From the NCBI GenBank assembly GCA_015065645.1, contig SVPW01000015.1:1-47280 (forward strand): a DNA stretch of 47,280 bases, written 5' to 3'. Source of the stretch: Oscillospiraceae bacterium (GTDB lineage Bacteria; Bacillota; Clostridia; Oscillospirales; Acutalibacteraceae). Within the stretch, counting starts at the first letter, position 1. Each line of letters begins with the position of its first letter. Of this stretch, positions 278 to 41,868 are shown one piece after another. A model generated the notes under the pieces. It searched no databases, was not told the origin of the DNA, and saw only the letters and a program-made list of their open reading frames with translations. Position numbers and translations under genes: made by a program.

Positions 278-3200
278 TTAGGATGCTGCAAGCTTCTTCA
301 TACGAACGAGATCCTTAACATTTACTGTAGTCTGGGTATCGTTCTTCTGAGCAGCTGAAAGGCTCATACCTTCAAGCTTTTCAATTCCCAAAATGTGCTT
401 TCTTATCATAACAATATCTGCCGCACCGCAACTTCCGTCACCGTCAAGGTCGCCACGAACCAAAGCATAAACGGTTGTTGTACCGCTTACTGCGTAACAA
501 CCTGTTCCTATTACGGCATTTGCCGAAAGAACTGTGGTTCCACGGTAAACTACTGCATTTGCAGGAAGACCGTTTGCTGCAAGGAATGCACTAACCTTGG
601 TATTTTCTGCAGTTTCAGCTGTATAGCTTTCGGATGGAGCTTCGGTACCCAAACGAATATCATCAAGATAAACAGTACCTGTCTCACCAACTACAAAGTC
701 AAAATCAAGGTAGGAATTAAAGGAGTTTGCAGGATTGGAAACCGCACCGCCGGTTGAGGTTTTAAGTGTACCCATATTAAATACATAGGTAGCAAAATCG
801 CTCTTAGCGGGAACGGTAACGCTGATTGCACCGTCTAAGGTTGTTGCATAGTTATTACCAACCTTGAGCTGTAAAGTTTTAGCGGTGCTATCGGGGTTCT
901 TAACCTTTACGGTAAGGTACTTGTATGTACCAAGTCTGTAAACCATTGTTGCATGCTTGAGTATCGGGCCTGCACCGTTATTTGCAACTGTTGTTGTAAG
1001 CTTGAGTGAAGAATTACCCTGTGCCTTAACAGCAGTATCAAACGAAATTGCAGCGCCTGTTTTAAGCACTTCCCAGGTAGCGGCAAAATCAGCTGTGTTA
1101 CCGCTTCTGGTATCAACCCAAACGGTTGCATAATCGGCATTCATCCAATCGTTATCACCGATATGAGTAGAAGCAACCTTATCTGTACGGAAAGGTACTA
1201 CCGGCATACCGTAGGAGTTTACAAGGTTTGCGTTCATATTGAATGAGCTGAAGCCATATGCTGCGGCAACAGGTGCGCTTACCATTGGTGAGTAAACCTC
1301 AATAGTATCCGCAGAGATTATTTTTGCATAAGCATTTACAAATACACGGTCAGCGCCCGCAATGGTAAAGCCATCAAGAACGGTATTGGTATTTCTCAAA
1401 GAAAGACCTGTTCCAACCTGATCCAAGGTAACATAAATCTTGTTGCCAACAACCTTCATGCTCTTATAAACAGCGGCATTATAACCTGCTGCGCCAACAC
1501 CGCAGAAGCGGCTGAGTATTGCATTTGCAAAACGCTCGGCCACAGGCTCTTTAGAGCTTGGGTGGATAGGATCAAAGTCACGATCGGGGGGATTTTTATA
1601 GGTAAGAGGAATATCATAGGTGGTTATCTGAACCATTGATTCAGGATGAGCCGCCCATACATTTGACATAGACTCTGCAAGATTTGCAAGTACGGTGTCA
1701 TAATCCTTCTGAGAGGTTCTTACTGTGCTGTAGTTATAAGGAGTGATATGTGCATAAAGGAAAGGCATTTCACCCTTTTCAAAGCCGAAAAGCGGTGCCC
1801 AATCTTCAGCAAGAGTTTTAAGAGCTTCCTCATAGAATACATTTTCACCGTTATCAAGAGCATACTTAACATTGCTTTCACCCTGATACCACATAACACC
1901 TGCAATGTTCATACCTGCAAGAGGAGCAAGCTTGGTATTATAAAGAGCTGTCATAAGATTCCAGTTTCCGGGAACCTTTAAGGTGGTTTCGGTCTTGTAA
2001 GCATTTCTGCCCTTTAATGTATTATAAACGGTATCATTATTATCAATGCTTTCTCTTGAAAGCCATGCTTCGATTACAGATGCACCCTTAGCGGCATTGA
2101 TAAAGCCAACGGGAACATTAAGCTCTTCACGAAGCTTGAGTGCGGTATAATAGCCTATTGCCGAAACATACTTAACATTTGCGGCAACGCTGCCGTTTGT
2201 CCAATAAGCACCCTCAATATCATAAGCAGGTGTTACGGGCAATGTGCTTTCCTTACCACCGGGAATGGTAGGTTCAACGAATACACGCACATATTTATCA
2301 AGCGGAATAAGGCTCCAATCATAACCGGGAATGGTTTGACCGAGGAAAAATTCCATATTGGACTGACCTGCGGTTACCCACAGTTCACCGATCATAATAT
2401 CGGCAATTTCTTTAGCAAGCTCACCGTCAACGGTTACCTTAATGGAGTAAACATCATAGCTACCCTTACGAGCTGCAAGTTTTACTTCCCAATCGCCGTT
2501 TACATCGGCTTTAGCGAATGCAGATTCAACAAGTGTGCCTGCCTTGTAAAGGTCTACCTTTACATCACTTCCTGCTCCTACTTGACCCCAGATGTTCATG
2601 GTCTTATTCTGCTGGAACATCATACCATCAGTAAACAATGTGGGCAGGGGTGAATTTTCGGCAACATCGGTAATATAAACATCCTGAACCTTAATGCGGT
2701 AGGTATCGGTATTACCGGGTTTTATATACAAACGCAGATAATTAATGCTTGAAAGGCTGAGTCCGTTATCAAAATTAGCTTCGGAAAGCTTTAAACGAAT
2801 ACTGGTCCAGCCTGAACGAAGACCCAATTTATCAACAGTCCAGCTTGCTTCCTGAACATCAGAGCCGCCTGAAGAGGTAAGCTCTAACTGACCGTCTGCA
2901 ACAAGATTGCTTATATCATCGGGATTGGTCTGGTTTTCAACATAAACCTTTAAGGTGAGCCAAAGGGAATCCTTGGTTTTTGCAGAAAGGTCATGGTTGA
3001 AAGAATTGTTTTCGTATACAAAGTTGTTTCCGCTTATGGTCTTATCAACGGTAGTTGTAAGAATAGGCCAGCCTGCATCGGTATCGGGAGCAGCAGTTAC
3101 AGCCTTTGCTCCAAGATAGATGTTATCAAAGCCTACAACACCCTCACCGATTTCGGTATTAAGAGAACTACCCTCAATAGTTACAAAGCTGAAGCGTGTG

Positions 3201-4409: not shown

Positions 4410-6362
4410 TTACGGCTTAACGGTTTCACTCCAATCAGCGGTAGCTAAAACCTGATATTCAGCTGTTTCATACTCCATACCGAGCATAAGCTTACGCAAG
4501 CAAACTGCGTCATTAGCCTCGATTACGCCATTTAAGTCAAGGTCAGCCTTTTCGGAAACGGTAACATCCTCATCAGCAAGGTAACGCTTGATTCTTACAA
4601 GGTCCTTAGCGTTAACTGCCTTATCGCCGTTAACGTCACCCTCTGCCAAAGGAGCTTCGGGTAAAGCACAGATGTTATCAATTCTCATATTACCGTTAGA
4701 AAGGGTTGTATCCATATAAGCACCGTCTGTTGTCTGGAAAGTAAAGCTTGCAATGGATGTAAAGTCAATGTTTGCATCTTTAAGGTCAACAGATAAGGTG
4801 TACCAACCCTCTTTAGCGGTAGCTTCTACGGTGATATCAGAAAGAGTATAAGCATGGGAAGCACCCTTAGAGTCGGTTATGGTTGCCTTAATGTAATCTG
4901 CATAAGCAGCTGCAACTACATCCCACATATCGGGAGCTGCTGTACCGTTAAGGAAACGAACATTCCAAGCAAGTCTGCTGTGACGGCTGATGTTTACAGG
5001 AGCGTCAAAGGTGTACTTAGCGGGACCGATCTTGCAGTAACCGCCAAATATATTAACTGCACCGCCTACATAACCGTTAACATTATGTGACATATTTGCA
5101 TGAACAGCCTCACCGTAATAGGTCCAACCGGTAAGACCCTCAGCATCTTCTAAAACCATTTCGCCAAGAGCTGCATAGTTGTAACCATTTGGCTGAACAT
5201 TGGAGTTGGTGAAATAAAGATTATCAAACTTGTAGATTGTGTTAGCAAGCTCTGTATTGCCTGCACCGTCTGCCTTGGTATAGATAACGAATGTGGTAAT
5301 CTTGGAAAGATCAAGACCGCTTTCGCTCAGATCAACAGCTACATGCCACCAGCTACCGTCTACCTTTGTGATCTCAAGATCATAAAGTGAATAGGTTGCA
5401 GTGGTAGTGCCATCGCTAACCTCAACACCGATAGTATCGGTATAGCTTTCAATAACAGCGCCAAACTGATCGGTAATAACCTTAACAGCAAGAGCTGTCA
5501 TATCCCACTCAAGTGCGGTGTAGCCTGTTGCATCAACAGGAGCAGCAGCAGTATAGGTGAGCTTACGGAGTATTCCGTATCCGCCTTCAAGAATTAAAGC
5601 GGCGCCTGTTTTACCGGAAGCGCTGTTTCCAAGAGCTGCAGTACCTGCATAGCTCCAACCGGTGGTATCTTCACACTCGGTTAAAACAATGGGGGTCTTA
5701 GCAGGCTCTTCATAGCCTGTTGCCTTAATGTTATCAAAACGGATGAAACCGTCATCAATATTGGTATTTACAGAGCCATCTGTTGTGGAGAAGTAGAAGC
5801 CCGAAAGAGCTGTGGGATCAAAATTGTTTACATCACTGTTGCAATCATCAAGCTTTGCAGTGAAGTGTACCCAAGTGTTATTTGTGCCGCTTACAACGGG
5901 ATTAAGCTTACCAATGCGGTAAATACGATAACCGCCGTTTGAAGAGATAAGCTTGAGATAAAGGTAATTGGTATTAGCATCGGTAGAAGTATAGTTTGCA
6001 ACTATCTGCTCCCACATTGTTCCTTCCATACCCTTTGTAGTTTGAGTATAGAACTGCATATCCCACTCAATATTGGTGTAATTGGAAACATCAAGCGGTG
6101 TGGGAAGATTATAGGTGAGCTGACGGGTTGCACCGTAATTTACCTGACGGTGAAGTGCTGTGTTGGTGCCGTAACCGTTTTCATTAATGGAAACAGGGTT
6201 ACCGCCGGTAACTACCCAACCATCGGTGGTATCACAATCTGTGATAACCAACGGGTCGGTTGCTTCTGCTGCTGATACAAAGCATAAACCGGTAAACATT
6301 GTGCATACCAATGCTGCTACCAACAATGAAGCTAACAATTTTGCAAAAAGTGTCTTTTTCAT
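4410..6362 (-). CDS. Secreted dockerin protein of three DC-x-GW modules, no enzyme domain
   Basis: This 650-residue protein starts at an ATG eight bases after AGGAGG. A signal peptide (about 1-32) is followed by three tandem copies of the locus module (about 38-222, 228-395, 403-572), then a two-repeat type I dockerin-like tail (about 573-625; GDVNGDKAVNAKDLVRIKRY and ADLDLNGVIEANDAV) and a short tail. No catalytic motif is visible, so it is best read as a binding or scaffolding component. The first module closely resembles the first module of the downstream esterase, sharing runs such as LKLISSNGGYR and PVSINENGYG, which suggests recent duplication. The gene sits 18 bp after the beta-helix gene, in the same operon. 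The binding role is inferred from architecture only. Confidence 0.85.
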   Translation of the reverse strand: MKKTLFAKLLASLLVAALVCTMFTGLCFVSAAEATDPLVITDCDTTDGWVVTGGNPVSINENGYGTNTALHRQVNYGATRQLTYNLPTPLDVSNYTNIEWDMQFYTQTTKGMEGTMWEQIVANYTSTDANTNYLYLKLISSNGGYRIYRIGKLNPVVSGTNNTWVHFTAKLDDCNSDVNNFDPTALSGFYFSTTDGSVNTNIDDGFIRFDNIKATGYEEPAKTPIVLTECEDTTGWSYAGTAALGNSASGKTGAALILEGGYGILRKLTYTAAAPVDATGYTALEWDMTALAVKVITDQFGAVIESYTDTIGVEVSDGTTTATYSLYDLEITKVDGSWWHVAVDLSESGLDLSKITTFVIYTKADGAGNTELANTIYKFDNLYFTNSNVQPNGYNYAALGEMVLEDAEGLTGWTYYGEAVHANMSHNVNGYVGGAVNIFGGYCKIGPAKYTFDAPVNISRHSRLAWNVRFLNGTAAPDMWDVVAAAYADYIKATITDSKGASHAYTLSDITVEATAKEGWYTLSVDLKDANIDFTSIASFTFQTTDGAYMDTTLSNGNMRIDNICALPEAPLAEGDVNGDKAVNAKDLVRIKRYLADEDVTVSEKADLDLNGVIEANDAVCLRKLMLGMEYETAEYQVLATADWSETVKP

Positions 6363-6380: not shown

Positions 6381-9300
6381 TTATATCCACCATGACTGCG
6401 CCTGGGAAATATAACCGTTTGAATTTGAATAGGGTATATTTCCTGCGCCGTCCGGCGGTAAATTAGACAAAGTTTGTTTTAAAAGGTCGGCAACAAGCCG
6501 CACCTTTGCAGAATTTCCTACAACAAAGGAAACCTGTTTTATGGGAAGCATTGCACTGCTCATATAAAGCGTGCCGTCGTTTACTTCGGCAATATTTTTT
6601 GTATTTTCAAGGTTATGATAGAAAATCTGGCTTACAATAAGGTTTCCGCCGTTCATTTTAATAGCAGAGTTAAGCGGTTGCGCCCAAGCGGTTGTGTTAA
6701 AGAGTGCCAGCGTACCGCCAACATCCTTTTCCATAACGACATGGTGCATATCGCTTGTGGCATTCATTGAAACAAGCTCAGAATTTATCATAACAACACA
6801 GTCAAGACGGCGTGCCACAACGGCGTTTTTACAGCCATCCGAGCCGTGACCTATGAAAATTCCGTTTGTGCCCTTACCACCTTCACTTGTAAAGACCAAA
6901 AGGTCCTTTGCCGCATAGCCGAAGGTGCCGAGCACATGTTCACTTGCGTTATCGCCGAAAATCATAGCCTCTAAAGTGAGATTAACTGCGTTATTAAGCG
7001 CATCGGAACCTGTGGTATCAAGCATTGAAAGTGTTGCACGCTTCCAATAGTGCGGATTAAACTGTACATTTTCCACCCAGCCGTTACCACTGTTATTACC
7101 AACATAAATACCACGCCTAAGCGGTGAACCGCTTACATAATTTATGTAGTGCCCTTTTGAGGGATAGGTGGCAAAATCAAGCGCATTGTAAGAATTAATA
7201 AAAACGCTGTTTATTGCCCAACAATTTTCACCCAATGACCGCACGGTATAGGAATAAGGAATAAAATCGGTAAAGGATTGCTCAGGATAATAGAAGCTTA
7301 TACCGTTTATTCCGGAGTTTGCCTCCAAAGAAATAAATGCCTTTGCATTTTCGTTATATTTACCGTAGGTTGTGCAAATAACCGAACCTGCAACCACCGA
7401 ATGGGTTGGAACATCATATATTCCACGAAGCTCTACCCCACTTGGAACGGTTAAAGGCTCATTCACATAATACTCACCCTTAGGCACATAAACCGTACCG
7501 CCTGTTTTTCCCGCCTGAAGTAAAGCGGCTTTAAATGCGGCGGTGCTGTCATATCCGGACAAAGCACCGTAATCGGTTACATCATAAACATATTTAGATG
7601 AAGCTTTTGGAACCGAACGGCGATATGTATGAGAATATGTGCTTTTAGGCAGATTAAGCGGAGTATTATCTATTTTGATATAATCCTGCCTACCGGAAGT
7701 TCTGTAAATATCGGGCATACCTTTAAATGTACATCCCAGAACCGAAACAGAACCTGCCGTAGCCTGTGCACGAATATGCTTTTGGGTCTGCGTAAAATCA
7801 CATTGCTGTAAGCTTACATTTCCGTAGTTTATTTCAACTGCGTACTCTGCAACATCCGTACAGGCAAAGCTACTGTTTGTTAAAGAAAGCTTACCGTTGT
7901 TTTTAGAATTCATAACAATCGGTATTTTAACAGAATTTAAAAATTCAAGATTGGTTATCTCAAACGAAGCAAGATAATCATTTGAAAAAACTATTCCGTT
8001 ATCGCAGTTACTGATTTTAACATCGGTAAGTGCGTAACCTATGGCATTGGTATAAACAACATCTATTGCCGTTTGGCAATTGGTTATATCAACACCAAAC
8101 ATCTGGCCGTTACTTCCTCTTACACGGTAGTTATCATCAACATCAATATAGCTTTCAAGCGCTATACCTCTTTTAACACCGTTTATTTGAAGGTCATAAA
8201 CATACTGCCAATCCGAACGCTGTATATAAAGGCCTGTTGTGTTATTCTTCATATACTGCGAAAGGGTTTGACGGTTTTGGCTACTTACCTCAAACAATGC
8301 ATTATCAAGCAGGTAATCGGGGCTTATATGTACCCCTTCCAATCTTCCTATATCGGTAACATTATTTATCTTTATACCGGTGTTAAGAGAAGAAATATAT
8401 ACATCCTTTACATAATGCAATTCACTCCAGGCGGTTGCGGCATCAAAGCCCACGCTTCCGCCAAGAATAGTAACATTGCGAACGGTATAGCTATCACTTC
8501 CAATAGCAGGAAGCTCAGCAATAGTTGCGCTGTAGGTGGCGGTAGAACCGTTTGCCGTTTCGGGATAGATAACGGTAATATTGCGGAAACCGCCGCCGCA
8601 TTTCAGGCTTACAAAGGGGCTCGTATCAGAAGTGATATCACCTGTATACACGGCAATGATACTTCCGCAACTTGCAGGCTCTGCCGTTTCAGGTGAAACC
8701 CATTCGCCCCTTAAAGTAACGCCCCCCGGAACGGTGATTGGCTTGTTACAGCGATACACACCCTCCGGTAGATAAACAACCCCTCCGCCACGAGCCTTTG
8801 CGGCATTCATAGCGCTTTGTATATGAGGCGAACAATCCCTTGACAGGTCATTTACAGGTGCACCGAAATCTCGCACAACATCGTATATTGCTATACACAG
8901 TCCGCTGCCGTCATCATATTTTAAATCAACGGCATACGGCTCACCCGCATTATGGCTCTTTTCACCTGAAGGAATATCCGAAACCTCTATAACAGGGGTA
9001 TCATCTTCAATAAAATTAATGTTTTCCAGCATACCTATTGCCTCTTTTGCGGCAGCAGCAGATAATATTTCTTCAATTGATACAACATATCCGCCGCAAT
9101 AGTCATCATCGGAATAATAAATTTGCGTTTCCCCATTTGCACAGGTGCAGATAATATATGCACGAACCGCAATTTCGGTATTTTTATCAAACCCGCTTGT
9201 ATATTCCGATAAAAGCAATGTAAACAATAAAATATCATCATTCTCCGCAGAAGTATAAAGCTTTCCCGAAGAATAATTGGTATATTTACGGCTGCTTCCG

Positions 9301-29081: not shown

Positions 29082-29115
29082 CTTGCCGAAAAAAATTCGG
29101 CAAGCTTTTTTATTT
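29082..29115. terminator. Bidirectional rho-independent terminator
   Basis: A 9-bp perfect stem (29082-29090 with 29096-29104, loop AAAAA) has a T-run on its right and an A-run on its left. It serves the regulator (+) and the convergent large esterase gene (-). Confidence 0.9.
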
Positions 29116-32100: not shown

Positions 32101-35100
32101 ATATTTGCCTTAGTTTCAGCCGTAACCTTTGAAAGCATTTCAGAGAAGGTTGCCAAAACGGTTGTATAATCCTCAGCACGAATACTTGCATAGTTATAAG
32201 GAGCAAGATGTGCACAAACAAACGGCATATTTCCGTTTTCAAAGCCAAATGCCTTACTATAGGAATCAATAAGACCCGAAAGCGCATGCTCATAGAAGGT
32301 GTTATAACCGTTATCCTCAGCATACTTAATATTGCTTTCACCCTGATACCAGAGCATACCGCTTATCTCAACACCTGCAAACGGAGCAATTTTTGAGTTA
32401 TAAAGGGTTGTGAGATAGGTCCAGTTTGAGCCTGTTCTGCCAAGCTGATCCTCGGTTAAATAGATGTTACGCTCAACCAAAACATCCTTAATAGCCTTAT
32501 CATTTTCAACCACTTCACGGGGCAACCACGATTCTATAACCGAAGCACCCTTTGCGGCATTTATAAATCCAACCGGAACATCAAGCTTTGCCTGAAGCTC
32601 AAGTGACATATAATAAGCTATTGCCGAAATATATTTAACATCAACTGCATTTGAACCATCTGCCCACTTAGCGCCCTCAATATCTGAAGCGCCGCTTGCG
32701 GGAAGTGTTGCACTTGTTCCACCGGGAACCAACGGAATATCAAAGAAACGAACCTTTTCATTAAGCGGAATAAGAGAATAATCATAATCCTTTATGGTTT
32801 GAAGCACAAAGAATTCCATATTAGACTGACCTGCAGCAAGCCACAACTCACCTATAAGTATATCAGAAATGGTTTTCTTTAACTGACCGCCAACATATAT
32901 CTCAATTTTATAGGTATCGTATCCGCCTGCACGGGCTGTAAAGCTAAGGCTGAAAGCGCCGTTCTGAGCAGAAGTTGCAGTTTTGGTTTCAAGCAATGCT
33001 TCTCCCTTATAAAGCTTTGCTTCAACCGCAAGATTTGCCGCAGAAACATTACCGAAAATGTTCATCGGCTTATTTTGCTGGAACATCATTCCATCTGCAA
33101 AATAGCTGTTTACAACCGTTTCTTCCTTGAGGTTTGTTATTGCGACATCCTCAATACGAACATTAAATTCATCCTCGCCCGCCTTAACGCTGTAAAAACG
33201 AAGATAATTTATGCTTGAAAGGTTAAGTCCGTTATCAAAATCAGCATTGGAAAGGAGAAGTCTCAGTTCATTCCAGCCTGATTTAAGACCTAATTTGGGA
33301 ACGGTCCAATTTGCTTCTTGCTTATCGCACTCTCCCGAAGATGTAAGCTCTATTTGACCCTCTTTTGTGAAATCAAGAACATCATCGCTACCATCAGTAT
33401 TCTCAATATAAACCCTCATAGTAAGGTATAAATCAGACTTTTTATATGCAGAAAGGTCATATTCAAACTGATTGAGTATAAAGGAGAAAGTTCCCTGAGT
33501 TTTCTTTTGGAAGCTTCCCTCAATAGGCCATACACCCTGGGTCTCAGGCTTTGAAGGCTCACCCTCACCAAGAACTGCAATAAGATTATCAATTCTGAAT
33601 ATTGCATCCGGCAAGGTTGTATCAAGAGGAGTTGCAGGGAGGGTATAAAAAGCGAAGGACTTAAACTCAGATAAATCCACCTTAGAATCGGAAGGAACCG
33701 AAACTGCCGCATGATACCAACGGTTAGCACCCTCAGTTATAACCATATCCGAAAGGGCAATTTTTTGGGTATTGGTGCCATCACTTATTTCCACACCGAT
33801 ATAATTACCATAGGAATTTTTGATTGCCGACCACATATCAAATGAGGTATCTCCGCTTTTAAAGCACTGGAAATCAAATTCAAAGGTATGATACTTTGAA
33901 AGGTCAATATCAGCAGAATGGGTATAAGTAAGCTTTCTTAATGCACCGTAGCCTGTGTAAACATAAACAGCATTACCGCTTAAACCGTTTGCATTAAGCT
34001 GCATATTTGAAGCATTTCCCGAATAAACCCAACCGTCAACAGTTTCGCAATCGGTAAGGGTTATGGTTTCATCAACAACTATCATATTTTCATCAAAACA
34101 AGCAAGCAGATTATCAAGACGGAAAATAGCAGTATTTACCGTTGTATCAAGTGTTGCTGTTGTGTTGGTATAAATAGAGAATGAGCTGAATTTTGCTAAA
34201 TCAAGTGTTCCGGTGGAGCTTGTGGGGTCAAGCACATTTATTGCAACATGATACCAGCAATTTCCAAGTGCTGTAACCTTCCATTTGTTAAGACCATAGG
34301 TATTAACGGCAGTACCGTCACTCACTTCAATCGCAATCTTATCACCGTAAGCGGCAGTAATTTCACTCCACATATCGTAAGAAGTGTCATTCTGCTTCAT
34401 ACACATCATATCAAACTCAATAACATTGTATTTTGAAAGATCTGCGTTTGCGCTAAAGCTCATTTTGCGAAGTGCGCCATAGCCTGTATAAATCTGAACA
34501 GCCTTATTGGTCATTCCATTGGGGGAGCTTGCCACATTGGAAACATTTCCCGAATAGCCCCAGCCATCCAAAGTTTCACATTCAGAAAGAATAAGGTCCT
34601 TAATTTCTTCAGGCTTTTCTTTACGAACGTTTGCGGCATAGATATTATCTATACGAACATGACCGTTTCTAACAGATGAGCTAAGCTGGCTGTTATCATT
34701 ATTCATGGTAGCAAAATTAAAGGTTGTCATTTTAGTCATATCAAAGCTACCCGTTGTGCTTGATGGGTCATCAAGATTTACAGAAAAATGATACCAAAGC
34801 TTATTGTTGCTATCCTGCTGAACCTCCATTTTAGAAAGGCGGTAGATATTGTAATCTGTAGCAGAAGAGCCTATTTTAAGGCAAACCAGCTCACCGTATA
34901 CAGCCGCAACATCCTCCCACATTCCGGGCTGTGCACCTGTGTGCATCATTATATCCCACTGAATATTCTGATAGCTTGAAATATCTATCGGGGAGGTTGT
35001 GAAGGTTGTATCTCTGAAGCAGCCTTTATCAACATTAACAGCAACCGCTTTACCTGTAAAACCGTTAGGATTTACCGAAAGCGATTGACCTGAGGTTTTG

Positions 35101-35237
35101 GTCCAGCCGGTCAATGATTCACAATCACTAATAAGCAATTTTTCGGGAGTTGAGGTATCTGCCAACGAAGGAATAGCTATTATAACTGCCGATAAAAGTA
35201 TTGCAATCGAACATAAAACAGAAATTATTTTCTTCAT
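29115..35237 (-). CDS. Giant membrane-anchored SASA-type acetylesterase with six DC-x-GW modules
   Basis: This 2040-residue protein starts at an ATG six bases after AGGAGGAG. Order: signal peptide (about 1-26), three DC-x-GW modules (about 28-560), the WPI beta module (about 569-700), a SASA esterase domain (about 709-1230), another beta module (about 1230-1400), three more modules of a second subtype (about 1413, 1607 and 1793 onward), a Gly/Thr-rich linker, and a C-terminal membrane span (about 2007-2034) ending KKKKR. Catalytic motifs are GQSNMEF near 805, WYQGESN near 963 and DPIHP near 1067. It is a paralogue of the dockerin esterase at 278-4327, with the tail swapped for a membrane anchor. 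It should deacetylate glycans at the cell surface; the substrate is unknown. It is the last gene of the right operon. Confidence 0.9.
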   Translation of the reverse strand: MKKIISVLCSIAILLSAVIIAIPSLADTSTPEKLLISDCESLTGWTKTSGQSLSVNPNGFTGKAVAVNVDKGCFRDTTFTTSPIDISSYQNIQWDIMMHTGAQPGMWEDVAAVYGELVCLKIGSSATDYNIYRLSKMEVQQDSNNKLWYHFSVNLDDPSSTTGSFDMTKMTTFNFATMNNDNSQLSSSVRNGHVRIDNIYAANVRKEKPEEIKDLILSECETLDGWGYSGNVSNVASSPNGMTNKAVQIYTGYGALRKMSFSANADLSKYNVIEFDMMCMKQNDTSYDMWSEITAAYGDKIAIEVSDGTAVNTYGLNKWKVTALGNCWYHVAINVLDPTSSTGTLDLAKFSSFSIYTNTTATLDTTVNTAIFRLDNLLACFDENMIVVDETITLTDCETVDGWVYSGNASNMQLNANGLSGNAVYVYTGYGALRKLTYTHSADIDLSKYHTFEFDFQCFKSGDTSFDMWSAIKNSYGNYIGVEISDGTNTQKIALSDMVITEGANRWYHAAVSVPSDSKVDLSEFKSFAFYTLPATPLDTTLPDAIFRIDNLIAVLGEGEPSKPETQGVWPIEGSFQKKTQGTFSFILNQFEYDLSAYKKSDLYLTMRVYIENTDGSDDVLDFTKEGQIELTSSGECDKQEANWTVPKLGLKSGWNELRLLLSNADFDNGLNLSSINYLRFYSVKAGEDEFNVRIEDVAITNLKEETVVNSYFADGMMFQQNKPMNIFGNVSAANLAVEAKLYKGEALLETKTATSAQNGAFSLSFTARAGGYDTYKIEIYVGGQLKKTISDILIGELWLAAGQSNMEFFVLQTIKDYDYSLIPLNEKVRFFDIPLVPGGTSATLPASGASDIEGAKWADGSNAVDVKYISAIAYYMSLELQAKLDVPVGFINAAKGASVIESWLPREVVENDKAIKDVLVERNIYLTEDQLGRTGSNWTYLTTLYNSKIAPFAGVEISGMLWYQGESNIKYAEDNGYNTFYEHALSGLIDSYSKAFGFENGNMPFVCAHLAPYNYASIRAEDYTTVLATFSEMLSKVTAETKANMIQIPIYDLSLEYKDPPINNPDPIHPNSKREVASRFATAVLAGVYSIGDKDAFTAPTVSSYQISGNKVILNFQNTGASLKLLSGNTLHGFAVAGSDRVFVKANAEIISATQVAVWSEHVSAPVAATYAWSSFNMAANLGNAAGIPAVPYRTDSIESVYDLSNDWGYCDSILTWDAVVSLEAGFKDAFKVSDNAAVSLVDDKLEGTAAVKLAYTNGTASVSPILNYGGMINQYKNYSGVTVYAKNSDSNSKTLSLELVAAGKTYKASVITGTSLATEYSLTSAYAAYTFNLNRLVNDEGKVLADSTTVLKTVTEIRFVVNDTKSGAVLFDNIYFRADKLPAPGSENDDIVAGVEDTTPGSLDSNGNMWLSDADTTAGWSTTGTPIANDTANLTQGKGSVGTTAAKGVLKQIVFSPGVSLDISSYDYLEFDVYFSNMEWFANCESMMFEMTSSGGSDNESNRYMKGYMRDNLPEFYAAGMDGSDKPGWYHVKLILDSPQTVARGGMNAKRFNYFRFFTIGSPDTTADFDIRFDNMKFTKEGSGEEVVAGNDPSYGKVIDKNSMWMTDGESLAFWTASAAEANLDFGNKTQGNSAVTVTAKGALLKQIAFVPTSSIDISDYQYLEFDVYFTNLDWFNKCGGMMFELTSAGVCDVESARYTKSSMLEASPVFAQDVENGTGGGKWYHFKLNLDRPHTSVKGGLDKKAFDYFRFYTVMPEEGTADYTMLLDNMKFTKGEKTSEIIKTDKEIILNNGDSSVGWTSPGQEVMPDKNNKVEGEASVTVTAKNGILKELVYRPSEAVDLTGYRYLQFDLFLSDISFLNTSTGLMVELTSSGTCDVESNRYMKSAILVACPELAQDLALGDKGNKWYHFCFDLQKPQNQARGGLDMTAADYFRIYFIGAEEGTPDCVVNIDNLKVTKEGIQGASTNTGGQTITITGGATPGKNVGNKLNGGLLAAALTPYPDDLVNTIIVLGAALAVVLIATVVFLILVLKKKKR

Positions 35238-35251: not shown

Positions 35252-36082
35252 TTAAGATTTATTCTTTTTGAGCTTTACTATAAACAGAACAATTACAGCC
35301 ACTAAAAGCACACCTGCAACGCCTACTGCAATATATCCCAAATTAACTATATTCTCAAGCTCTGCACGCAGTTCAAGGTTTTTATCTGTACGCTTAGGCA
35401 CATAAACGGTTGCCTTTTCACTGCTTGTATTTGAAATGCCGCTGCTTTCTTCCTTTTCATCCACCATAGGAACATAATTTTCAGGATTATTGGTAAAGCG
35501 AACATTATCTATACGCATGGTGTAATCGGGAGTGGTGGAAATGGGGTCAACCGAATAAAATCTGAAGAAATTGAATCTTGTTTTATCAAGCTGACCGTTT
35601 GCTGTACCCTGAGGGTCATCAAGAACCAAAACAAAATGCCACCAATTCTGTTTTCCCTCAATAGCACCGTTTTCAAAAAGATGACGCATCACCTTTTTCA
35701 TATATCGGTTAGATTCCTTATCGGTAGTGCCTGAAGAGGTGAGCTCAATCATAACACCGCCGCAATCTGTAAACCAAGTAATATCACTGAAATAAATATC
35801 AAATTCCATATAGGAATACTTTGAAATATCTATTGGTGCGCTTGGAATATAGGCAATCTGGTTAAGCTTACCGTTTATAGCGGTAGCGCCAACAGAGCCC
35901 GAACCCTCAACAAAATTTGCGGCATCCCCCTCAAGAGCATCCATTCCTTGGCTGTTTGCCGACCAATTAAGGGTGGTATCGCAATTTGAAAGAACGATAT
36001 CATCGTCACCTGCTGCATTTGCGGTAAAGCATAAGGAGAATATAAGCATTACAGCAGTAAATATTGTTATAAACCGTTTCAT
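35252..36082 (-). CDS. Small membrane-anchored protein with a single DC-x-GW module
   Basis: This 276-residue protein starts at ATG 36082, eight bases after AGGAGG (the TTG just before it is less likely). A signal peptide (about 1-25) is followed by one module of the second subtype (about 28-205; MIELTSSGTTDKESNRYMK, MRIDNVRF), a Ser/Glu-rich linker and a C-terminal membrane span (about 248-270) with a basic tail. It closely resembles the three C-terminal modules of the adjacent giant esterase, 14 bp downstream. No catalytic motif is seen. It is probably a surface glycan-binding partner; this is inferred from architecture. Confidence 0.82.
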   Translation of the reverse strand: MKRFITIFTAVMLIFSLCFTANAAGDDDIVLSNCDTTLNWSANSQGMDALEGDAANFVEGSGSVGATAINGKLNQIAYIPSAPIDISKYSYMEFDIYFSDITWFTDCGGVMIELTSSGTTDKESNRYMKKVMRHLFENGAIEGKQNWWHFVLVLDDPQGTANGQLDKTRFNFFRFYSVDPISTTPDYTMRIDNVRFTNNPENYVPMVDEKEESSGISNTSSEKATVYVPKRTDKNLELRAELENIVNLGYIAVGVAGVLLVAVIVLFIVKLKKNKS

Positions 36083-36100
36083 CAATAAATCCTCCTATAA

Positions 36101-38902
36101 TTATGACCACCAAGTAGCCGTTTCGGTCACCTTTGCGCCATCATTACGCATTGTAACCTTTGCTCCATCCACCGGTGCCATAAATGCCAACGATTGACGG
36201 CTGATATTTCCTATCAAATGCACGGTAGCGCCGCCAACTGCTCTTACCTGACATGCCTTTGAAGGCATCATTACGGCACAGTAGTAAATTTCACCACCTG
36301 TAGCATTTACCAAGAATGTGGTATCCTCAAGGTTGTAATAGGAAAGCTGATTTACAACAAGTCTACCACCGTTCATCTTAATAGCCTCAGCCTTAGGCTG
36401 AGCCCACATCATTGAGTTATAAAGTGCAACAGTACCTGTTACGCTTTCCTTCATAACGATATGGTGCATATCCTTTTCACCGTTCATTGAAACAAGCTCT
36501 GCATTAATAAATTCAACCACATCAGCCTCTTCAACAACAAGTGCATTACGGCAACCATCAGAACCGTGACCTACAACAGTTCCGTTAAGACCGCCCTTAC
36601 CCTGAGAAACAAGCACCAAAAGATTTTCTCCGCCATAAGCAAAGTTTCCAAGCATATGCTCAGATTTATTATCGCCGAAAATAAATACATCAAGAGTTTC
36701 GTTGATAACATTATTAAGCTCAGCACCGTCACCTGCAGGCTTTTGAGAAAGCACTGCACGCTTCCAATAATGGGGGTTAAACTGACAGTTTTCTACCCAT
36801 CCGTTTGAGCTGTTATTTCCTATAAACATACCCTTTACAAGCGGTGCACCGCTGCAATAGTTTATATAATGACCGTCAGAGGGGTTTGTGGCAAAATCAA
36901 GTGCCTGATAGGAATTTATAAACACGCTGTTTATTGCCCAGCAGTTTTTACCCAAGGAACGCACTGTCCAAGGATAAGGAATAAAATCGGTATAGGACTG
37001 CTCAGGATAATAGAAAGAAATACCGTTAATTCCCGAACCCTCTTCCAAGCTTACAAACGGCTCACCGTTTGCGTTTCCTTTACCAAGTGTGGTGCAAATG
37101 GTTGAACCCTTTGTAACACTGTGGGTAGGAACATTGTAAATACCTCTAAGCTCAACACCTGTGGGGATTACGAGGTTTTGATTAACTATAAACTCACCCT
37201 GCGGCACATACACAATACCGCCTGTTTTCTTTGCTGCGGCAATGGCATCAACAAAAGCCTTTGTGCTATCCTCCCCACTCTTTGCGCCAAAATCCTCAAC
37301 ATTATAAACTGCGTTTGAGGAAGCGGTGGGGATACTGCGGCGATAAACATGAAGTCTGCCGCTTGTAACAGGAAGATTAAGCGGTGTATGATCAATTTTA
37401 ATAAATGCTTCTTTTGTTTTATCGTGCTTAATATCGGCATTGCCTCCAAAGCTACAACCCATAACGGAAACACCGCCGCACTCAGAAGCTATTTGAATAT
37501 GCCTTTTTTCGCCGTCAAATTCACACTGCTGTATGCTCACGCTTCCCTTATACATTGTGAGTGCATAGGAGCCAACCTTTCTGCCAACAAATTTACTGTT
37601 TAAAACGGTTAAAGCACCTGTTCCAAGGCAAACAAACTGTTCCTTTATTTTACCCGAAATGGTAACATTCTGGAACTCACTTGTTTCGGAAAAGCCTGCA
37701 TTCATAAGCACGCCATAGGTACATTTTTCGTCACCTGTAATATTTATTTCACTGAAAACACAGCCGATAGCATTGGTTGCCTGAATATCAATACCAATAT
37801 TACAATTTTTTATATCAATCTTGCAATACTGTGCGTTTGCGGCACGCTTTTCTTTATTGTAAACCTGACGAATAGCGCAATAAAGACCCTCTGCATAGAA
37901 ATCATAGATATATTCCCAGTCAGATCTTTGCATCCAAAGACCAACCGCAAATTGGAACATATAATCCCTTATTATCTGCTTATCCTCTTCCTCAAAGGGA
38001 TAAAGGGTGTTTTGAATGAGATATTCGGGAGAAAGATGTATACCCTCAAGACGACCAATATCGGTAACATTGTCAAGCATAATTGCATTATTGAAGGCGG
38101 TTATGTAAACATTCTTCATATAATGGAGCTCACTCCAATTAAGATTGCCCTGATAACCGTTCCAACAGCCTGCAATAGTGGTATTCATAACGGTGAAGCT
38201 GTCACCGCCTGCTTCCTGAATGGTTGCAGGATATTTTGCCACTTCCGAAGCAGTTTGTTCGGGATAAAGGATGTTTACATTCCTAAGTCCTGCGCCGGCT
38301 TTCATTTTAATAAATGCCGAACCTGTTTCTCTGCCTCTTGTTTTGCTTTTAACAAGAATAACCGTTCCACAGCTTCCCACAGGGGAAACATCAGGGCTCA
38401 CCCACTCACCTCTGAGTGTTACACCTGCAGGAATTTCAAGTGTATTTTCACAAAGATATATACCCTCAGGCATATAAACCACACCGCCGCCTGCACCTGA
38501 AGCCTTTATGAGTGCACGCTGAATTGCGGGGGTTGCATCCTTTGTACCGTCATTGCAAGCACCAAAATCCGCAACAACATCATAAATTGCCACGCACACA
38601 CCCGTTCCGTCATCATATTTAACATCAACGGCATAGGGTTTTCCCGGGGTTCTCTTTCCTGCTTCAACCTTAGTAGGAATAATAACAGGTGTATCATCAT
38701 CAATAAAATTCAATCCCGAAAGAAAGGTGTTTTTATCAATGTTCTCAGGAATATCAACCTTTGTAACATCTTCTGTGGGATACGAAAAGCTGTAATCCAA
38801 ATTGCCGAATTTCACAGCAGTTTTCTTTTCCTCTTTGCATCCCGCAAAAACCGTGATAAGCATTACTGTAACTAAAAGTAATGCCATTAATCTTTTACAC
38901 AT
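36101..38902 (-). CDS. Beta-helix (pectate-lyase-3-like) lipoprotein
   Basis: This 933-residue protein starts at an ATG after GAGGTG. The lipoprotein signal ends FAGC (Cys22), so it should be held at the outer membrane face. Two right-handed beta-helix entry motifs are visible: AIYDVVADFGACNDGTKDAT with VVYMPEGIY, and VYNVEDFGAKSGEDSTKAF with VYVPQGEFIV. The repeated turns between them are typical of polysaccharide lyases, GH28-like hydrolases and related proteins. It aligns over nearly its whole length with the secreted protein at 6381-10094 but lacks that protein's DC-x-GW module. Catalytic residues cannot be assigned. It lies 14 bp after the GH38 gene, within the right operon. Confidence 0.87.
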   Translation of the reverse strand: MCKRLMALLLVTVMLITVFAGCKEEKKTAVKFGNLDYSFSYPTEDVTKVDIPENIDKNTFLSGLNFIDDDTPVIIPTKVEAGKRTPGKPYAVDVKYDDGTGVCVAIYDVVADFGACNDGTKDATPAIQRALIKASGAGGGVVYMPEGIYLCENTLEIPAGVTLRGEWVSPDVSPVGSCGTVILVKSKTRGRETGSAFIKMKAGAGLRNVNILYPEQTASEVAKYPATIQEAGGDSFTVMNTTIAGCWNGYQGNLNWSELHYMKNVYITAFNNAIMLDNVTDIGRLEGIHLSPEYLIQNTLYPFEEEDKQIIRDYMFQFAVGLWMQRSDWEYIYDFYAEGLYCAIRQVYNKEKRAANAQYCKIDIKNCNIGIDIQATNAIGCVFSEINITGDEKCTYGVLMNAGFSETSEFQNVTISGKIKEQFVCLGTGALTVLNSKFVGRKVGSYALTMYKGSVSIQQCEFDGEKRHIQIASECGGVSVMGCSFGGNADIKHDKTKEAFIKIDHTPLNLPVTSGRLHVYRRSIPTASSNAVYNVEDFGAKSGEDSTKAFVDAIAAAKKTGGIVYVPQGEFIVNQNLVIPTGVELRGIYNVPTHSVTKGSTICTTLGKGNANGEPFVSLEEGSGINGISFYYPEQSYTDFIPYPWTVRSLGKNCWAINSVFINSYQALDFATNPSDGHYINYCSGAPLVKGMFIGNNSSNGWVENCQFNPHYWKRAVLSQKPAGDGAELNNVINETLDVFIFGDNKSEHMLGNFAYGGENLLVLVSQGKGGLNGTVVGHGSDGCRNALVVEEADVVEFINAELVSMNGEKDMHHIVMKESVTGTVALYNSMMWAQPKAEAIKMNGGRLVVNQLSYYNLEDTTFLVNATGGEIYYCAVMMPSKACQVRAVGGATVHLIGNISRQSLAFMAPVDGAKVTMRNDGAKVTETATWWS

Positions 38903-38916: not shown

Positions 38917-41868
38917 TTATACTTTATATGAATGTATTTCAAATGGACGGTAATCGGTTGAGCCTTCAACCGCACCCTCGTCTTTTTCACACAGGTCACA
39001 TCTTGTAACAGCCTGCTTTTGCGGCATTATAATATTACATTTTGCCCTGCTTCCTGCGGCTTCATAGGTGCGAACAACAAGCTCATCGCCGTTTTCAGCC
39101 TTTTTAACACCGTCAATAATAACATTTTTGGCATCAACCGCAATATAACTGTGCTGTAATTCACCCTCACCGCTTTCAACGGGCACCATAACAGGCTGGG
39201 TATTGAAAATTGCCGCTTGACGAACGGTGTTTATAAGCGAAGTCCCGTCATCCGAATAAATGCCGTAAGCAAATTCATGCTTGCCAAAATCAAGATTTTT
39301 TGCAGGATAATCGGTACCTCTTAAAGCATTAAGCTCAATTACATTATCCTCCACCGAATAGCCATACTTGCAATCGTTAAGAAGGGCAAATTGCAATCCC
39401 GGAATACCGAGAGACAACCATCTGTGAGCCGCCATTTCAATCTGAGCCATCTGCTGTGGATTATTTCTTCTGGTAGAACGCTTAACAAAACCAAATTGGG
39501 TTTCACAATTCACATAATCGGAATCCACACCGGTATTGAAAGCAATTCTTAGCATTTTATGCTTTTCGTGCCAATCGGCAAAAGCCTTAAATTTAAGCAC
39601 ACGGTCATTATCACCCAAGGAAATCTGAAGCTTAATTTCAGATTTATTATAACGGTAAGTCTGCTCCATAACAGCACCGCAGGGGGTGAGCTTCATTTCA
39701 CTTTCTGCCAAAGCCACCCTTTCAGGTGTTTGATTGCGGTAATCATACTGTAAATTCCACGCATTTTCAAGGTCATCATAAATATAGAGTATATTGGAAT
39801 TTCCAGCCAAAAGCTCCTCTTGCAAATCCTTATTGAAGATGCTTGAGATACTTCCGTCCTCACTGAATTCAACACGCAAATAATCATTTTCAAAGCCCTG
39901 CATTTTTGAAACGCTTTTGTTTCCTTCAAGGTCAATAACCTTGTATCCCATAGGAGGTAAAACGGTATGTATTGTACCGTTTTCGGTTTCAATAACATAA
40001 TCTCTTTCAAAGGAAAGAGTATTGAAAATAGCCACGCCTTTTTTCATTCCGTTAGCCTTAATATCTCCTGCCAAAACCTTTACAGCGTTATCCCTGATAG
40101 CCAAAGCCTGATTATAAAGCTGTTCGTAACGCTCCAAGCTTTCATCATAAACACGCTGAATGGAAGAACCGGGCAGAATATCATGGAACTGATAAAGCAA
40201 AACCTCTTTCCAAATCTGCTCAAGCTCATTTTGCGGATACTCAAAGCCGTAAAGCCTGCTTGCAAAGGAAGCAAAAAACTCTGCATCTCTGAGTGTTTTT
40301 TCCATAAGGCGATTATAAAGCTTATTTCTTGCGGCAGAGGTGTAAACACCCAAATGCCTTTCAAGATACATTTCATCCGAAAATACCGGAAGCTCCTCAC
40401 GGCGTTCATTAAGGCGGGTAAAGAAATCTGCCATTTTACCTTGCTTTATAGGGCAAAGTCCCGGCAAATTCTGCTCACGGCGCAAATATTCAAGGTGTGA
40501 CGGACTTGGTCCTCCGCCACCGTCACCTATACCAAACGGTAAAAGCGCTTCTCCAAACTGACTGTTTGCGGCAAGCTTGCGGCAAACCTTTTTAACCGAT
40601 TTAGCAGTTCCCTCACTCAAATAGTTACCCTCAGGAGGCATATGAACCAAAACCTCACTGCCATCAATACCACGCCAACGGAAGCTTGTATACGGAAAAT
40701 CGTTTATAAGGTTCCACGACATCTTTATGGTTGAAAAATATTCAATTCCCGCTTTGCGGAATATCTGCGGTAAAGCCGCAGAATAGCCGAATGTATCAGG
40801 TGTCCAAACAAAATTAACCGTTTGGCCAAACTCCTTTTTCCAAAAAGCATTTCCGTAAAGAATCTGCCTTACAACCGATTCACCGCTGATAAGGTTAAGG
40901 TCAGGCTCAGCCCAAACAGCACCCAAAAGCTCCCAACGGCCGTCCGCAATGGACTTTTTAACCTTTTCATAAAGCTTTGGATAATCCTGCTTCACCCATT
41001 CATAAAGCTGAGGCGAGCTTGAACCAAAAAGATATTCAGGATAACGGTTCATAAGCTCAAGCGCTGTTGCAAAGGTTCTTGCCCCCTTACGCTTGGTTTC
41101 ACGAACAGGCCAAAGCCACGCAAGGTCAATATGAGCATGACCAAAAGCAGTAAGCCAAACGGCAGGATTTTCCCCACCCTTTAGTGCCAAGCGTGCTTTG
41201 GTTATCTTCAAACATTCGTTAAATTCTTCATTGGTAAAATTGATAAGTAAATTACGGCATTTGCTTAAAATATTAAGTATTTCATAACGCAACGGGTCAT
41301 CCTGAGCAGTGTTTTCCGCCTGAACAAAAAGCACTATCATATCATAGAAAAGGTCCCTTGCCGTATCGTTACATTCCGCTATATAGGCTTCCTTTATTCT
41401 GCCGCCCTCCTGCAAATTTCCCGTAAGGTCATTACAAGCGGCATCCATCCAGAAATCTATCTGCTCATTGCCATCGGCACATTCCTTATACTGAACAATT
41501 CTCTTTCCGGGGTTACCCATTGCACGGTCAAACATTGAATTTACATTGGTAATACCCCTTAAAGGACAGCCGTCATCATCAAAAATCAAACCCTCACCGT
41601 TTATATCAATTACATATACTATCTTTTTACCCTTTGCACTTTCAGGCAATTTTGCGGTAAAATGAAACCAAGCACAATCAAATAATCCGCCCCAGGCTTC
41701 ACCAATTCCCGCAGTTTTATGCTCACCGCTAAACCTTTCTTCAAATTTCAGCGGCTCTTTGGAGGTATACTGCTCCATATCAAGATCAATAATCTTGGTG
41801 TAAACACGGTTTTTTACCCTATTTATACAGTTTCTAAGGTTTTCCAATACATATCTTTCGTTATACAA
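38917..41868 (-). CDS. Alpha-mannosidase, GH38 (long type)
   Basis: This 983-residue cytoplasmic enzyme starts at TTG 41868, seven bases after AGGAG, which reproduces the usual N-terminus of the family (YNERYVLENL). It has no signal peptide. Zinc ligands lie in HAHIDLAWLWP (His244, His246, Asp248), the likely nucleophile Asp358 is in WTPDTFGY, and FHDILPGSS (His near 562) completes the site. This is a different GH38 subclass from the enzyme at 12294-14867, so the locus has two cytoplasmic mannosidases probably acting on different linkages. It leads the right operon, under a consensus promoter with operator-like motifs in its leader. Confidence 0.92.
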   Translation of the reverse strand: MYNERYVLENLRNCINRVKNRVYTKIIDLDMEQYTSKEPLKFEERFSGEHKTAGIGEAWGGLFDCAWFHFTAKLPESAKGKKIVYVIDINGEGLIFDDDGCPLRGITNVNSMFDRAMGNPGKRIVQYKECADGNEQIDFWMDAACNDLTGNLQEGGRIKEAYIAECNDTARDLFYDMIVLFVQAENTAQDDPLRYEILNILSKCRNLLINFTNEEFNECLKITKARLALKGGENPAVWLTAFGHAHIDLAWLWPVRETKRKGARTFATALELMNRYPEYLFGSSSPQLYEWVKQDYPKLYEKVKKSIADGRWELLGAVWAEPDLNLISGESVVRQILYGNAFWKKEFGQTVNFVWTPDTFGYSAALPQIFRKAGIEYFSTIKMSWNLINDFPYTSFRWRGIDGSEVLVHMPPEGNYLSEGTAKSVKKVCRKLAANSQFGEALLPFGIGDGGGGPSPSHLEYLRREQNLPGLCPIKQGKMADFFTRLNERREELPVFSDEMYLERHLGVYTSAARNKLYNRLMEKTLRDAEFFASFASRLYGFEYPQNELEQIWKEVLLYQFHDILPGSSIQRVYDESLERYEQLYNQALAIRDNAVKVLAGDIKANGMKKGVAIFNTLSFERDYVIETENGTIHTVLPPMGYKVIDLEGNKSVSKMQGFENDYLRVEFSEDGSISSIFNKDLQEELLAGNSNILYIYDDLENAWNLQYDYRNQTPERVALAESEMKLTPCGAVMEQTYRYNKSEIKLQISLGDNDRVLKFKAFADWHEKHKMLRIAFNTGVDSDYVNCETQFGFVKRSTRRNNPQQMAQIEMAAHRWLSLGIPGLQFALLNDCKYGYSVEDNVIELNALRGTDYPAKNLDFGKHEFAYGIYSDDGTSLINTVRQAAIFNTQPVMVPVESGEGELQHSYIAVDAKNVIIDGVKKAENGDELVVRTYEAAGSRAKCNIIMPQKQAVTRCDLCEKDEGAVEGSTDYRPFEIHSYKV

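What the first reader, a model, noticed from the sequence alone, without database searches (positions are those of the whole stretch)
278..41868. The locus encodes its outer enzymes twice: an anchored set and a released/dockerin set
The SASA esterase has a transmembrane-anchored version (29115-35237) and a dockerin version (278-4327). The beta-helix protein has a lipoprotein version (36101-38902) and a secreted version (6381-10094). The module-only protein has an anchored version (35252-36082) and a dockerin version (4410-6362). This three-way pairing across two operons suggests duplication of a whole outer-surface cassette followed by a switch of localisation: one set held on the cell, one placed on a scaffold or released.
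Basis: partly seen in the sequence, partly recalled or inferred. Interest (0 to 1): 0.85.

Follow-up and report, generated by a model that had tools for sequence, protein, structure and literature searches.

The report
Duplicated surface-enzyme block, two attachment modes

Summary
The gene architecture is real, and two of the three pairs are true paralogues: the twin beta-helix proteins (49.5% over 887 aa) and the SASA esterases (39.7% over 1211 aa; 52% in the core). In each tree the two copies form separate multi-species clades that together stand apart from other homologues. Old duplication, not independent acquisition, fits both. The third pair fails: each module-only protein is kin to its own neighbours, not to the other module protein. 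The GH38 and transporter genes are not duplicates. The order BH-MOD-SASA occurs twice; 6 of 70 genus genomes carry the BH family and 5 of these 6 have both BH copies. A rabbit relative lacks the dockerin/secreted block (and also SASAtm) and is the only one of 8 carriers without detectable cohesins or dockerins. The anchored set keeps its anchors. The other set evolves faster and carries dockerins at differing positions, so there was no single clean switch. The window's genome encodes two membrane-anchored single cohesins and no multi-cohesin scaffold was found, so the dockerin proteins may be re-tethered rather than released. This is a new variant of known Gram-positive utilisation loci.

The parts
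278..4369 (-). SASA-family carbohydrate esterase, dockerin version: signal peptide, 2 CBM-like modules, SASA core, C-terminal dockerin-like domain (SASAdoc)
   Evidence: Pfam SASA 31.9 bits (cut-off 24.8), Dockerin_1 18.9 bits (cut-off 22.9); paralogue of 29115-35237
4410..6362 (-). module-only protein with C-terminal dockerin: 3 CBM-like modules (MODdoc)
   Evidence: Dockerin_1 38.5 bits; modules kin to SASAdoc m1 and BHsec module
6381..10094 (-). secreted twin beta-helix protein with one N-terminal CBM-like module (BHsec)
   Evidence: Pect-lyase_RHGA_epim 74.2 bits; paralogue of 36101-38902
10118..10146 (-). promoter-like site directly before BHsec (TTGAAA-17-TATAAT, 11 of 12)
   Evidence: consensus match only; 5 such sites of 9 or more matches in the 501-base region against 2.1 expected
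10211..12283 (-). GH42-type beta-galactosidase, no signal peptide seen
12294..14867 (-). GH38 alpha-mannosidase, SpGH38-type, no signal peptide seen (GH38a)
14882..18254 (-). sugar-binding lipoprotein and two ABC permeases (SBPa, PERa1, PERa2)
18258..20849 (-). DUF5696 protein with lipobox-like N-terminus
   Evidence: DUF5696 522.5 bits
20867..23032 (-). NHL-repeat / Yip1 membrane protein
23090..27733 (-). second ABC permease pair and large solute-binding protein (PERb1, PERb2, SBPb)
   Evidence: permeases only about 25% identical to the first pair, SBPs without mutual hit at 1e-3
27910..29064 (+). GntR-HTH / LacI-type sugar-binding regulator
29115..35237 (-). SASA-family esterase, membrane-anchored version: 3 type-A modules, SASA core, 3 type-B modules, C-terminal TM (SASAtm)
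   Evidence: SASA 36.4 bits; TM span; modules
35252..36085 (-). module-only protein, one type-B module plus C-terminal TM (MODtm)
36101..38902 (-). twin beta-helix lipoprotein (BHlip)
   Evidence: Pect-lyase_RHGA_epim 88.1 bits; AF2 model pLDDT 92.1
38917..41868 (-). GH38 alpha-mannosidase, Ams1-type, no signal peptide seen (GH38b); not a duplicate of GH38a
   Evidence: 22.5% to GH38a
42070..43380 (+). FAD-dependent oxidoreductase, conserved divergent neighbour of the anchored half
41886..42055 (.). three copies of operator-like motif TTTGTATTAT in the divergent promoter region (others at 10205 and 27747)
   Evidence: 5 of 5 exact copies in the window are intergenic

Best explanation
This is a Gram-positive polysaccharide utilisation locus whose extracellular block beta-helix / module protein / SASA esterase was duplicated in an ancestor of the present carriers. 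Shown: the BH and SASA pairs are old sister paralogues whose split predates the separation of most carriers compared (UBA5396 undecided); the block order is the same in both copies; the anchored copy keeps lipobox-like and TM anchors. Inferred: BH and SASA were copied in one event. Later the module proteins were rebuilt from modules of their own neighbours, so they no longer match. The anchored set works at the membrane next to the two ABC importers. The second set evolves faster; its SASA and module proteins acquired dockerins, at more than one place in the SASA lineage, and would plug onto membrane-held single cohesins, while BHsec is secreted. Breakdown products would then be imported and finished by the cytosolic GH38 and GH42 enzymes. 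One GntR/LacI-type regulator probably controls both halves through the shared TTTGTATTAT sites.
For: Pair identity. BH tree of 42 rows: lip and sec labels each need one origin, sec clade 100/99, lip clade 100/99 without UBA5396 (84/36 with it), joint clade 100/100 with stem 1.03; joint clade 100/100 also in the 21-row tree. SASA: doc clade and tm side are sisters (99/97 and 98/97; 99/98 and 95/97); next-best SASA outside the own genome in 295 genomes of the order is 37% against 52% for the pair. Reciprocal best hits for the 19 locus genes: 19 in G200, 18 in G202, 17 in G206, 16 in G204, 15 in G203, 8 in G201 (G201 and G204 are cut by contig ends). 6 of 70 genomes of the genus carry clade members, 5 of 6 with both BH copies. 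G203 has no BHsec, MODdoc or SASAdoc after GH42, with other genes there and no contig end, and its BHlip lies inside the lip clade (97/87), so loss rather than a pre-duplication state. Cohesins and dockerins in 7 of 8 carriers, none of either in G203. Membrane-anchored single cohesins. Branch lengths: sec longer than lip against each of 4 genomes with both (G200 .547/.266, G201 .945/.492, G202 .85/.534, G204 1.113/.645, the last on a partial row); SASA doc longer than tm in both comparisons printed (.73/.38, 1.14/.66). Motif in intergenic regions.
Against: The module-only proteins do not descend from one another. G203 also lacks SASAtm (no SASA match in its genome), so it does not show loss of one block alone. 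One duplication event for both families is not shown: the place of UBA5396 (G205) is weak in both trees (BH with lip at 84/36; SASA outside at 87/85; BH outside not rejected, AU p 0.382). The dockerin-bearing SASA of G202 (partial sequence) falls on the tm side of the tree (95/97), and moving it to the doc side is not rejected (AU p 0.064). The faster rate is not special to exported proteins: cytosolic GH38a is also less conserved than GH38b in 5 of 5 genomes (67/71, 54/62, 51/62, 57/66, 56/65%), and plain BLAST identity shows no difference for SASA in G204 (52% over 655 aa against 51% over 1843). The window SASAdoc dockerin scores below Pfam's cut-off and the G200 one gives no Pfam match at 0.05. 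No localisation, docking or enzyme activity was measured. The genomes are draft assemblies; the window is a whole 47,280-base contig, so what followed SASAdoc at its left end is unknown.
Confidence: 0.7

Rival explanations
1. Two separate gene-by-gene duplications (BH and SASA each on its own), later brought into the same order beside a module gene by selection for operon order, rather than one block duplication.
For: The GH38 and module genes beside them are not duplicates. G200 has a lone third BH (L062) and has SASAdoc at the other end of the locus. G206 has a lone third SASA. So single genes do duplicate and move here.
Against: Same order and strand BH-MOD-SASA in both halves. Pair-to-orthologue distance ratios are of the same order (BH 1.44 against .645+1.113; SASA 1.21 against .66+1.14). 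G203 lacks the three genes of the second copy together, though also SASAtm.
Confidence: 0.24
2. Independent acquisition: the dockerin/secreted half came in by horizontal transfer from another lineage that already had its own BH-MOD-SASA set.
For: The locus is patchy in the genus (6 of 70), so transfer of the whole locus is likely at some point.
Against: BH and SASA pairs are each other's nearest groups among all sequences compared. No donor with only the secreted set appeared in the genome-contig scan (32 loci) or in 200 genomes of the family; the one carrier with BHsec but no BHlip, G206, has a partly deleted anchored half.
Confidence: 0.05
3. The dockerin set is a relic: the SASAdoc dockerin is degenerate and the set is decaying, so there is no functional two-location system.
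For: The second set evolves faster; SASAdoc dockerin 18.9 bits, below cut-off; G206 SASAdoc is split over two frames; G203 lacks the set.
Against: Full-length ORFs with the SASA motifs GQSNM and DxxHP and the BH motif NPHYW intact in both window copies (role of the SASA motifs recalled). MODdoc dockerin above cut-off in the window, G202 and G204, and in G200 and G206 (33.3 and 35.4 bits). Cohesins present in all 7 carriers that have dockerins.
Confidence: 0.12

Closest known systems
Gram-positive polysaccharide utilisation loci (gpPULs) of Roseburia/Eubacterium rectale (PMC5320581; search listing and start of abstract seen only; the gpPUL definition is recalled)
   Same: Regulator, ABC importer, cytosolic and exported carbohydrate enzymes in one locus.
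   Different: Two importer sets and a duplicated extracellular block whose copies carry different attachment signals.
Cellulosomal / non-cellulosomal paralogues such as the GH48 enzymes of C. thermocellum (Cel48Y non-cellulosomal) and A. cellulolyticus (PMC3413522, passages read)
   Same: One copy with a dockerin, another of the same family without.
   Different: There the second copy carries a cellulose-binding CBM and no dockerin, single genes; here the non-dockerin copies carry membrane anchors and the two sets are adjacent blocks in one locus.
Ruminococcus albus, dozens of dockerins with one or no cohesin protein (PMC4081043, passages read)
   Same: Many dockerins (26 matches in the window's genome) and very few cohesins (2).
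   Different: The R. albus cohesin protein carries its own dockerin and is adaptor-like; here each of the two cohesin proteins has a membrane span.
AlgE-type mannuronan C-5 epimerase / alginate lyase beta-helices (5lw3, 2pyg)
   Different: BH has two beta-helices in tandem; whole-protein Foldseek best match is the GH55 laminarinase 3eqn (TM 0.31-0.36). Substrate unknown.

Membership tests
Duplicated cassette (block duplication of BH-MOD-SASA) | each pair is each other's nearest kin | tested here: inconclusive
   met for BH and SASA, not met for MOD
Duplicated cassette (block duplication of BH-MOD-SASA) | same gene order and strand in both copies | tested here: met
   relatives (exceptions: SASAdoc relocated in G200; G206 and G203 incomplete)
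Duplicated cassette (block duplication of BH-MOD-SASA) | flanking GH38 and transporter genes included in the duplication | tested here: not met
   GH38a SpGH38-type, GH38b Ams1-type; permeases about 25%, SBPs no hit
Cellulosome / cohesin-dockerin system | dockerin on the exported proteins | tested here: met
   MODdoc 38.5 bits against cut-off 22.9; SASAdoc only 18.9; 26 dockerin matches in the genome
Cellulosome / cohesin-dockerin system | cohesin-bearing proteins in the same genome | tested here: met
   2 cohesins above cut-off, in proteins with a membrane span
Cellulosome / cohesin-dockerin system | scaffoldin with several cohesins | tested here: not met
   only two single-cohesin ORFs found; genome 85.7% complete, so absence is not proven
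Cellulosome / cohesin-dockerin system | cohesin-dockerin binding | not testable with these tools
   needs purified proteins
Gram-positive polysaccharide utilisation locus | regulator, sugar ABC importer and carbohydrate-active enzymes together | tested here: met
SASA / carbohydrate esterase | Pfam SASA above gathering score | tested here: met
   31.9 and 36.4 bits against 24.8
AlgE-type C-5 epimerase | epimerase or lyase activity on uronate polymers | not testable with these tools
   fold similarity only

The most novel reading that the evidence does not exclude
A three-gene extracellular block of a Gram-positive utilisation locus was duplicated; one copy stayed membrane-anchored under stronger constraint, while the other was recruited, with dockerins gained at more than one place, to a set of membrane-held single cohesins, so that the dockable copy is kept only where cohesins exist. 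The locus would then be a natural paired experiment on why a cell holds the same enzymes both fixed and dockable.
Probability: 0.43. Interest if true: 0.65.

Novelty: new variant of a known kind. Interest (0 to 1): 0.5.

Why it matters
Dockerin and non-dockerin versions of single enzymes are known, but here whole neighbouring sets of the same enzymes, in one co-inherited locus, differ in attachment mode. That lets the value of fixing an enzyme to the cell, as against docking or releasing it, be asked with natural paralogues under what looks like shared regulation. The match between presence of cohesins and presence of the dockerin set (8 genomes, one contrast) gives a direct prediction for more genomes.

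Tried and rejected
Third pair as paralogues: rejected by the 86-module tree, where MODtm modules lie inside the type-B clade with SASAtm C-terminal modules (100/100), MODdoc m1 lies with first modules of SASA proteins and MODdoc m3 with the BHsec module (95/85).

GH38 and ABC genes as part of the duplication: rejected.

G203 as a single-copy ancestor: not favoured, because its BHlip nests within the lip clade (97/87, 92/88).

UBA5396 (G205) as a pre-duplication state: undecided.

First impression that the SASAdoc genes of G204 and G206 lack a dockerin: corrected; it lies between modules 1 and 2.

A palindromic operator AATACAAATTTGTATT: not above chance in the window (2 matches, 1.15 expected). 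The 12-base form AATTTGTATTAT with up to one mismatch has 5 matches against 1.32 expected, reached by 2 of 100 shuffles. In front of the regulator gene it overlaps a possible -10 element (by eye), so part of the signal may be promoter.

Structure: DUF5696 (threshold 0.1) and GH42 (1e-5) gave no PDB sequence hit. The MODdoc model is weak over the dockerin (mean pLDDT 76); its best Foldseek matches are reelin fragments, then CBM22 and CBM11 chains (TM 0.17-0.23 by query length, up to 0.61 by target length), so the module is only called CBM-like.

Script slip: one search compared loci with a window set that lacked the regulator and the four flank genes; one search repeated this with them for 16 loci.

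Literature: no paper of the held library has DUF5696. The listings for dockerin/cohesin in Ruminococcaceae, paralogue and localisation, Gram-positive loci with duplication, duplicated anchored/dockerin sets and GH38+GH42+dockerin+operon showed, by title and start of abstract, nothing that describes this locus; of the papers, only passages of PMC4081043, PMC3413522 and PMC7157769 were read. Most subscription papers are not in that library.

Full report
WHAT IS THERE. The window is a complete contig of 47,280 bases of a 1.86 Mb, 51-contig, 85.7% complete genome. In order of transcription the locus reads: a divergent FAD oxidoreductase; GH38b, BHlip, MODtm, SASAtm; a divergent GntR/LacI-type regulator; SBPb, PERb2, PERb1, NHL-Yip1, DUF5696, PERa2, PERa1, SBPa, GH38a, GH42; BHsec, MODdoc, SASAdoc. 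The two GH38 and the GH42 proteins show no signal peptide by a hydropathy scan and by eye, so they are probably cytosolic. The exported enzymes present twice are BH and SASA; DUF5696 is exported by the same criterion and single.

PAIRS. BLASTP within the window: BHlip/BHsec 49.5% over 887 aa; SASAtm/SASAdoc 39.7% over 1211 aa (core 52%); MODtm/MODdoc 25-27% over 193-239 aa. MODtm is nearer to SASAtm C-terminal modules (45% over 172 aa), and MODdoc is nearer to the SASAdoc N-terminus (44% over 419 aa). GH38a/GH38b 22.5%, permeases about 25%, the two SBPs no hit. GH38a matches the 3lvt/2wyh type (2e-164) and GH38b the Ams1 type (7vqo, 5e-144). So the duplication concerns BH and SASA, MOD at most in position, and not GH38 or transport.

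TREES. BH, 42 rows including Spirochaetota, Planctomycetota, Calditrichota and family members (of the matches, those spanning under 550 aa were left out, except the partial G204 row, which was put back): the lip group (7 rows) and the sec group (7 rows) each need one origin; sec is 100/99, lip 100/99 without UBA5396 and 84/36 with it. Together with one further UBA5396 row they form a clade with 100/100 support and a stem of 1.03. SASA, 22 rows of which 20 differ (three matches under 200 aa left out) and 19 rows (two repeats and one very long branch taken out): doc clade 99/98 and tm side 95/97, sisters; the UBA5396 copies lie outside (87/85, not firm). In BH, UBA5396 lying outside both is not rejected (p 0.382). 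The G202 dockerin-bearing SASA (partial row) groups on the tm side; the alternative is not rejected (p 0.064). Modules, 86 rows (9 of the 95 detected were under 150 aa and left out): the type-B clade (100/100, stem 1.56) holds the 6 MODtm and 19 SASAtm C-terminal modules. MODdoc m1 pairs with SASAdoc m1 of the same genome in 3 of the 5 genomes that have both (window 99/89, G202 100/93, G206 100/99; in G200 it pairs with SASAdoc m2, in G204 it does not), which suggests copying or conversion within the cassette; by plain identity the window's pair (69.5%) is not above its match to G202 (71.8%). MODdoc m3 is sister to the BHsec module (95/85).

RELATIVES. The genome-contig scan gave 32 loci; 12 of these (L055-L065 and L077), from 7 genomes, belong to the joint clade. 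Handles: G200 sheep omasum, G201 RUG11203, G202 horse faeces, G203 rabbit ('Lapin'), G204 E0_DM bin125, G205 UBA5396, G206 RUG14768. In the genus 7 of 70 genomes matched at 1e-20; one of them (G541) has only remote relatives (25-33%), so 6 of 70 carry the clade, 5 of those 6 with both BH copies (that G510, G534, G528, G540 and G536 are the same genomes as G200, G201, G202, G204 and G206 is inferred from near-equal coordinates). G203 and G205 did not appear among those 70, so they probably lie outside the genus, which was not tested directly. In 200 genomes of the family the best match outside the own genome is 36%. Co-occurrence: both BH in G000, G200, G201, G202 and G204; BHlip only in G203; BHsec only in G206, where GH38b is cut to 243 aa and BHlip and MODtm are missing; G205 has copies of its own. 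Both SASA types in G000, G200, G204 and G206; G202 has SASAtm plus the ambiguous dockerin-bearing copy; G201 has only SASAtm (its BHsec contig ends early); G203 has none. So G203 lacks the whole second block and also SASAtm.

LOCALISATION. The seven BHlip sequences examined (window and 6 orthologues) carry a lipobox-like N-terminus (motif recalled). Of 7 BHsec-clade rows, 6 (window, L061, L063, L064, L077, L147) have a signal-peptide-like N-terminus without a clear lipobox (three of them have LLC but no small residue before the Cys); L062, a third copy in G200, has one. C-terminal TM in SASAtm of the window and 5 of 5 orthologues examined (G200, G201, G202, G204, G206), and in MODtm of the window and 5 of 5 examined, UBA5396 included. 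MODdoc has a C-terminal dockerin in the window, L061, L064, one of two L077 copies and L148; the other L077 copy lacks it. SASAdoc: C-terminal and weak in the window, C-terminal by eye but without a Pfam match in G200, C-terminal in G202, internal between modules 1 and 2 in G204 (37.4 bits) and G206 (21.5 bits, cut-off 22.9). The dockerin was therefore gained, or moved, more than once in that lineage (inference).

DOCKING PARTNERS. The window's genome has 2 cohesins and 26 dockerin matches. One cohesin sits behind an N-terminal membrane span (190 aa), the other ahead of a C-terminal one (533 aa). Seven of 8 carriers have cohesins and dockerins; G203, which lacks the second block, has neither. 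This is one contrast only, and G205 has 3 cohesins with only 2 dockerins, so it is suggestive, not proof.

RATE AND REGULATION. Distances from the window copy to the same genome are larger for BHsec than BHlip in 4 of 4 genomes with both, and for SASAdoc than SASAtm in both printed comparisons. Against a special cause: the cytosolic GH38a is also less conserved than GH38b in 5 of 5 genomes. Exact TTTGTATTAT occurs 5 times in the window, all 5 intergenic although intergenic DNA is 1,839 of 47,280 bases. Intergenic copies lie in both divergent promoter regions of G200, G203 and G206, in one of them in G201 and G204, and in neither in G202; some relatives also have genic copies. In the window BHsec also has a promoter-like site of its own; in G200 and G202 the GH42-BHsec gap is only 21 and 32 bases (coordinates), so this is not conserved.

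CONCLUSION. The claims of a three-way pairing, of a single localisation switch, and of simple release are not supported. On rechecking, the fact that G203 also lacks SASAtm was added and the odds of the best explanation were lowered slightly (0.72 to 0.70).

Noticed in passing
10205, 27747, 41886, 41898, 42046: All 5 exact copies of TTTGTATTAT in the window are intergenic, in the two divergent promoter regions and before BHsec; a likely site of the GntR/LacI-type regulator.
   Followed up: partly
L062:9023-12640: A third beta-helix gene of the secreted clade in G200, away from the locus, has a lipobox-like N-terminus: a localisation change inside the secreted lineage.
   Followed up: partly
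L146 (aa 231-284 of ORF 845-4819), L140 (aa 219-257 of ORF 6210-7250): Dockerin sits between modules 1 and 2 in these SASA orthologues instead of at the C-terminus.
   Followed up: partly
L141:17827-18558: In G206 GH38b is cut to its first 243 aa and BHlip and MODtm are missing, leaving SASAtm: a deletion in the anchored half.
   Followed up: no
4410-4450 and L061, L064, L077, L148: Short similar tail after the MODdoc dockerin (W-S-x-x-V-K-P or similar at the very C-terminus); role unknown.
   Followed up: no
window 4410-6362 and 278-4369: First modules of MODdoc and SASAdoc are most alike within one genome in G202 (86% and 81%), G206 (77%) and G200 (57%), as if homogenised; by identity not so in the window or G204.
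   Followed up: partly
L065:9185-13159 and 7641-9077: UBA5396 SASA and module proteins end in SPDTG/SPATG plus a hydrophobic tail, which looks like sortase anchoring (motif recalled).
   Followed up: no
L168:4403-5233, L140:7262-8098: A small alpha/beta-hydrolase-like gene (by eye) lies after GH42 in G203 and between MODdoc and SASAdoc in G206.
   Followed up: no
18258-23032: DUF5696 lipoprotein and NHL-Yip1 membrane protein are conserved between the two importer sets in 4 of 4 relatives with complete coverage there (G200, G202, G203, G206); no paper in the held library mentions DUF5696.
   Followed up: no
L166:5861-16724: G541 of the same genus has a tandem array of remote beta-helix homologues next to an SBPa-like protein.
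   Followed up: no
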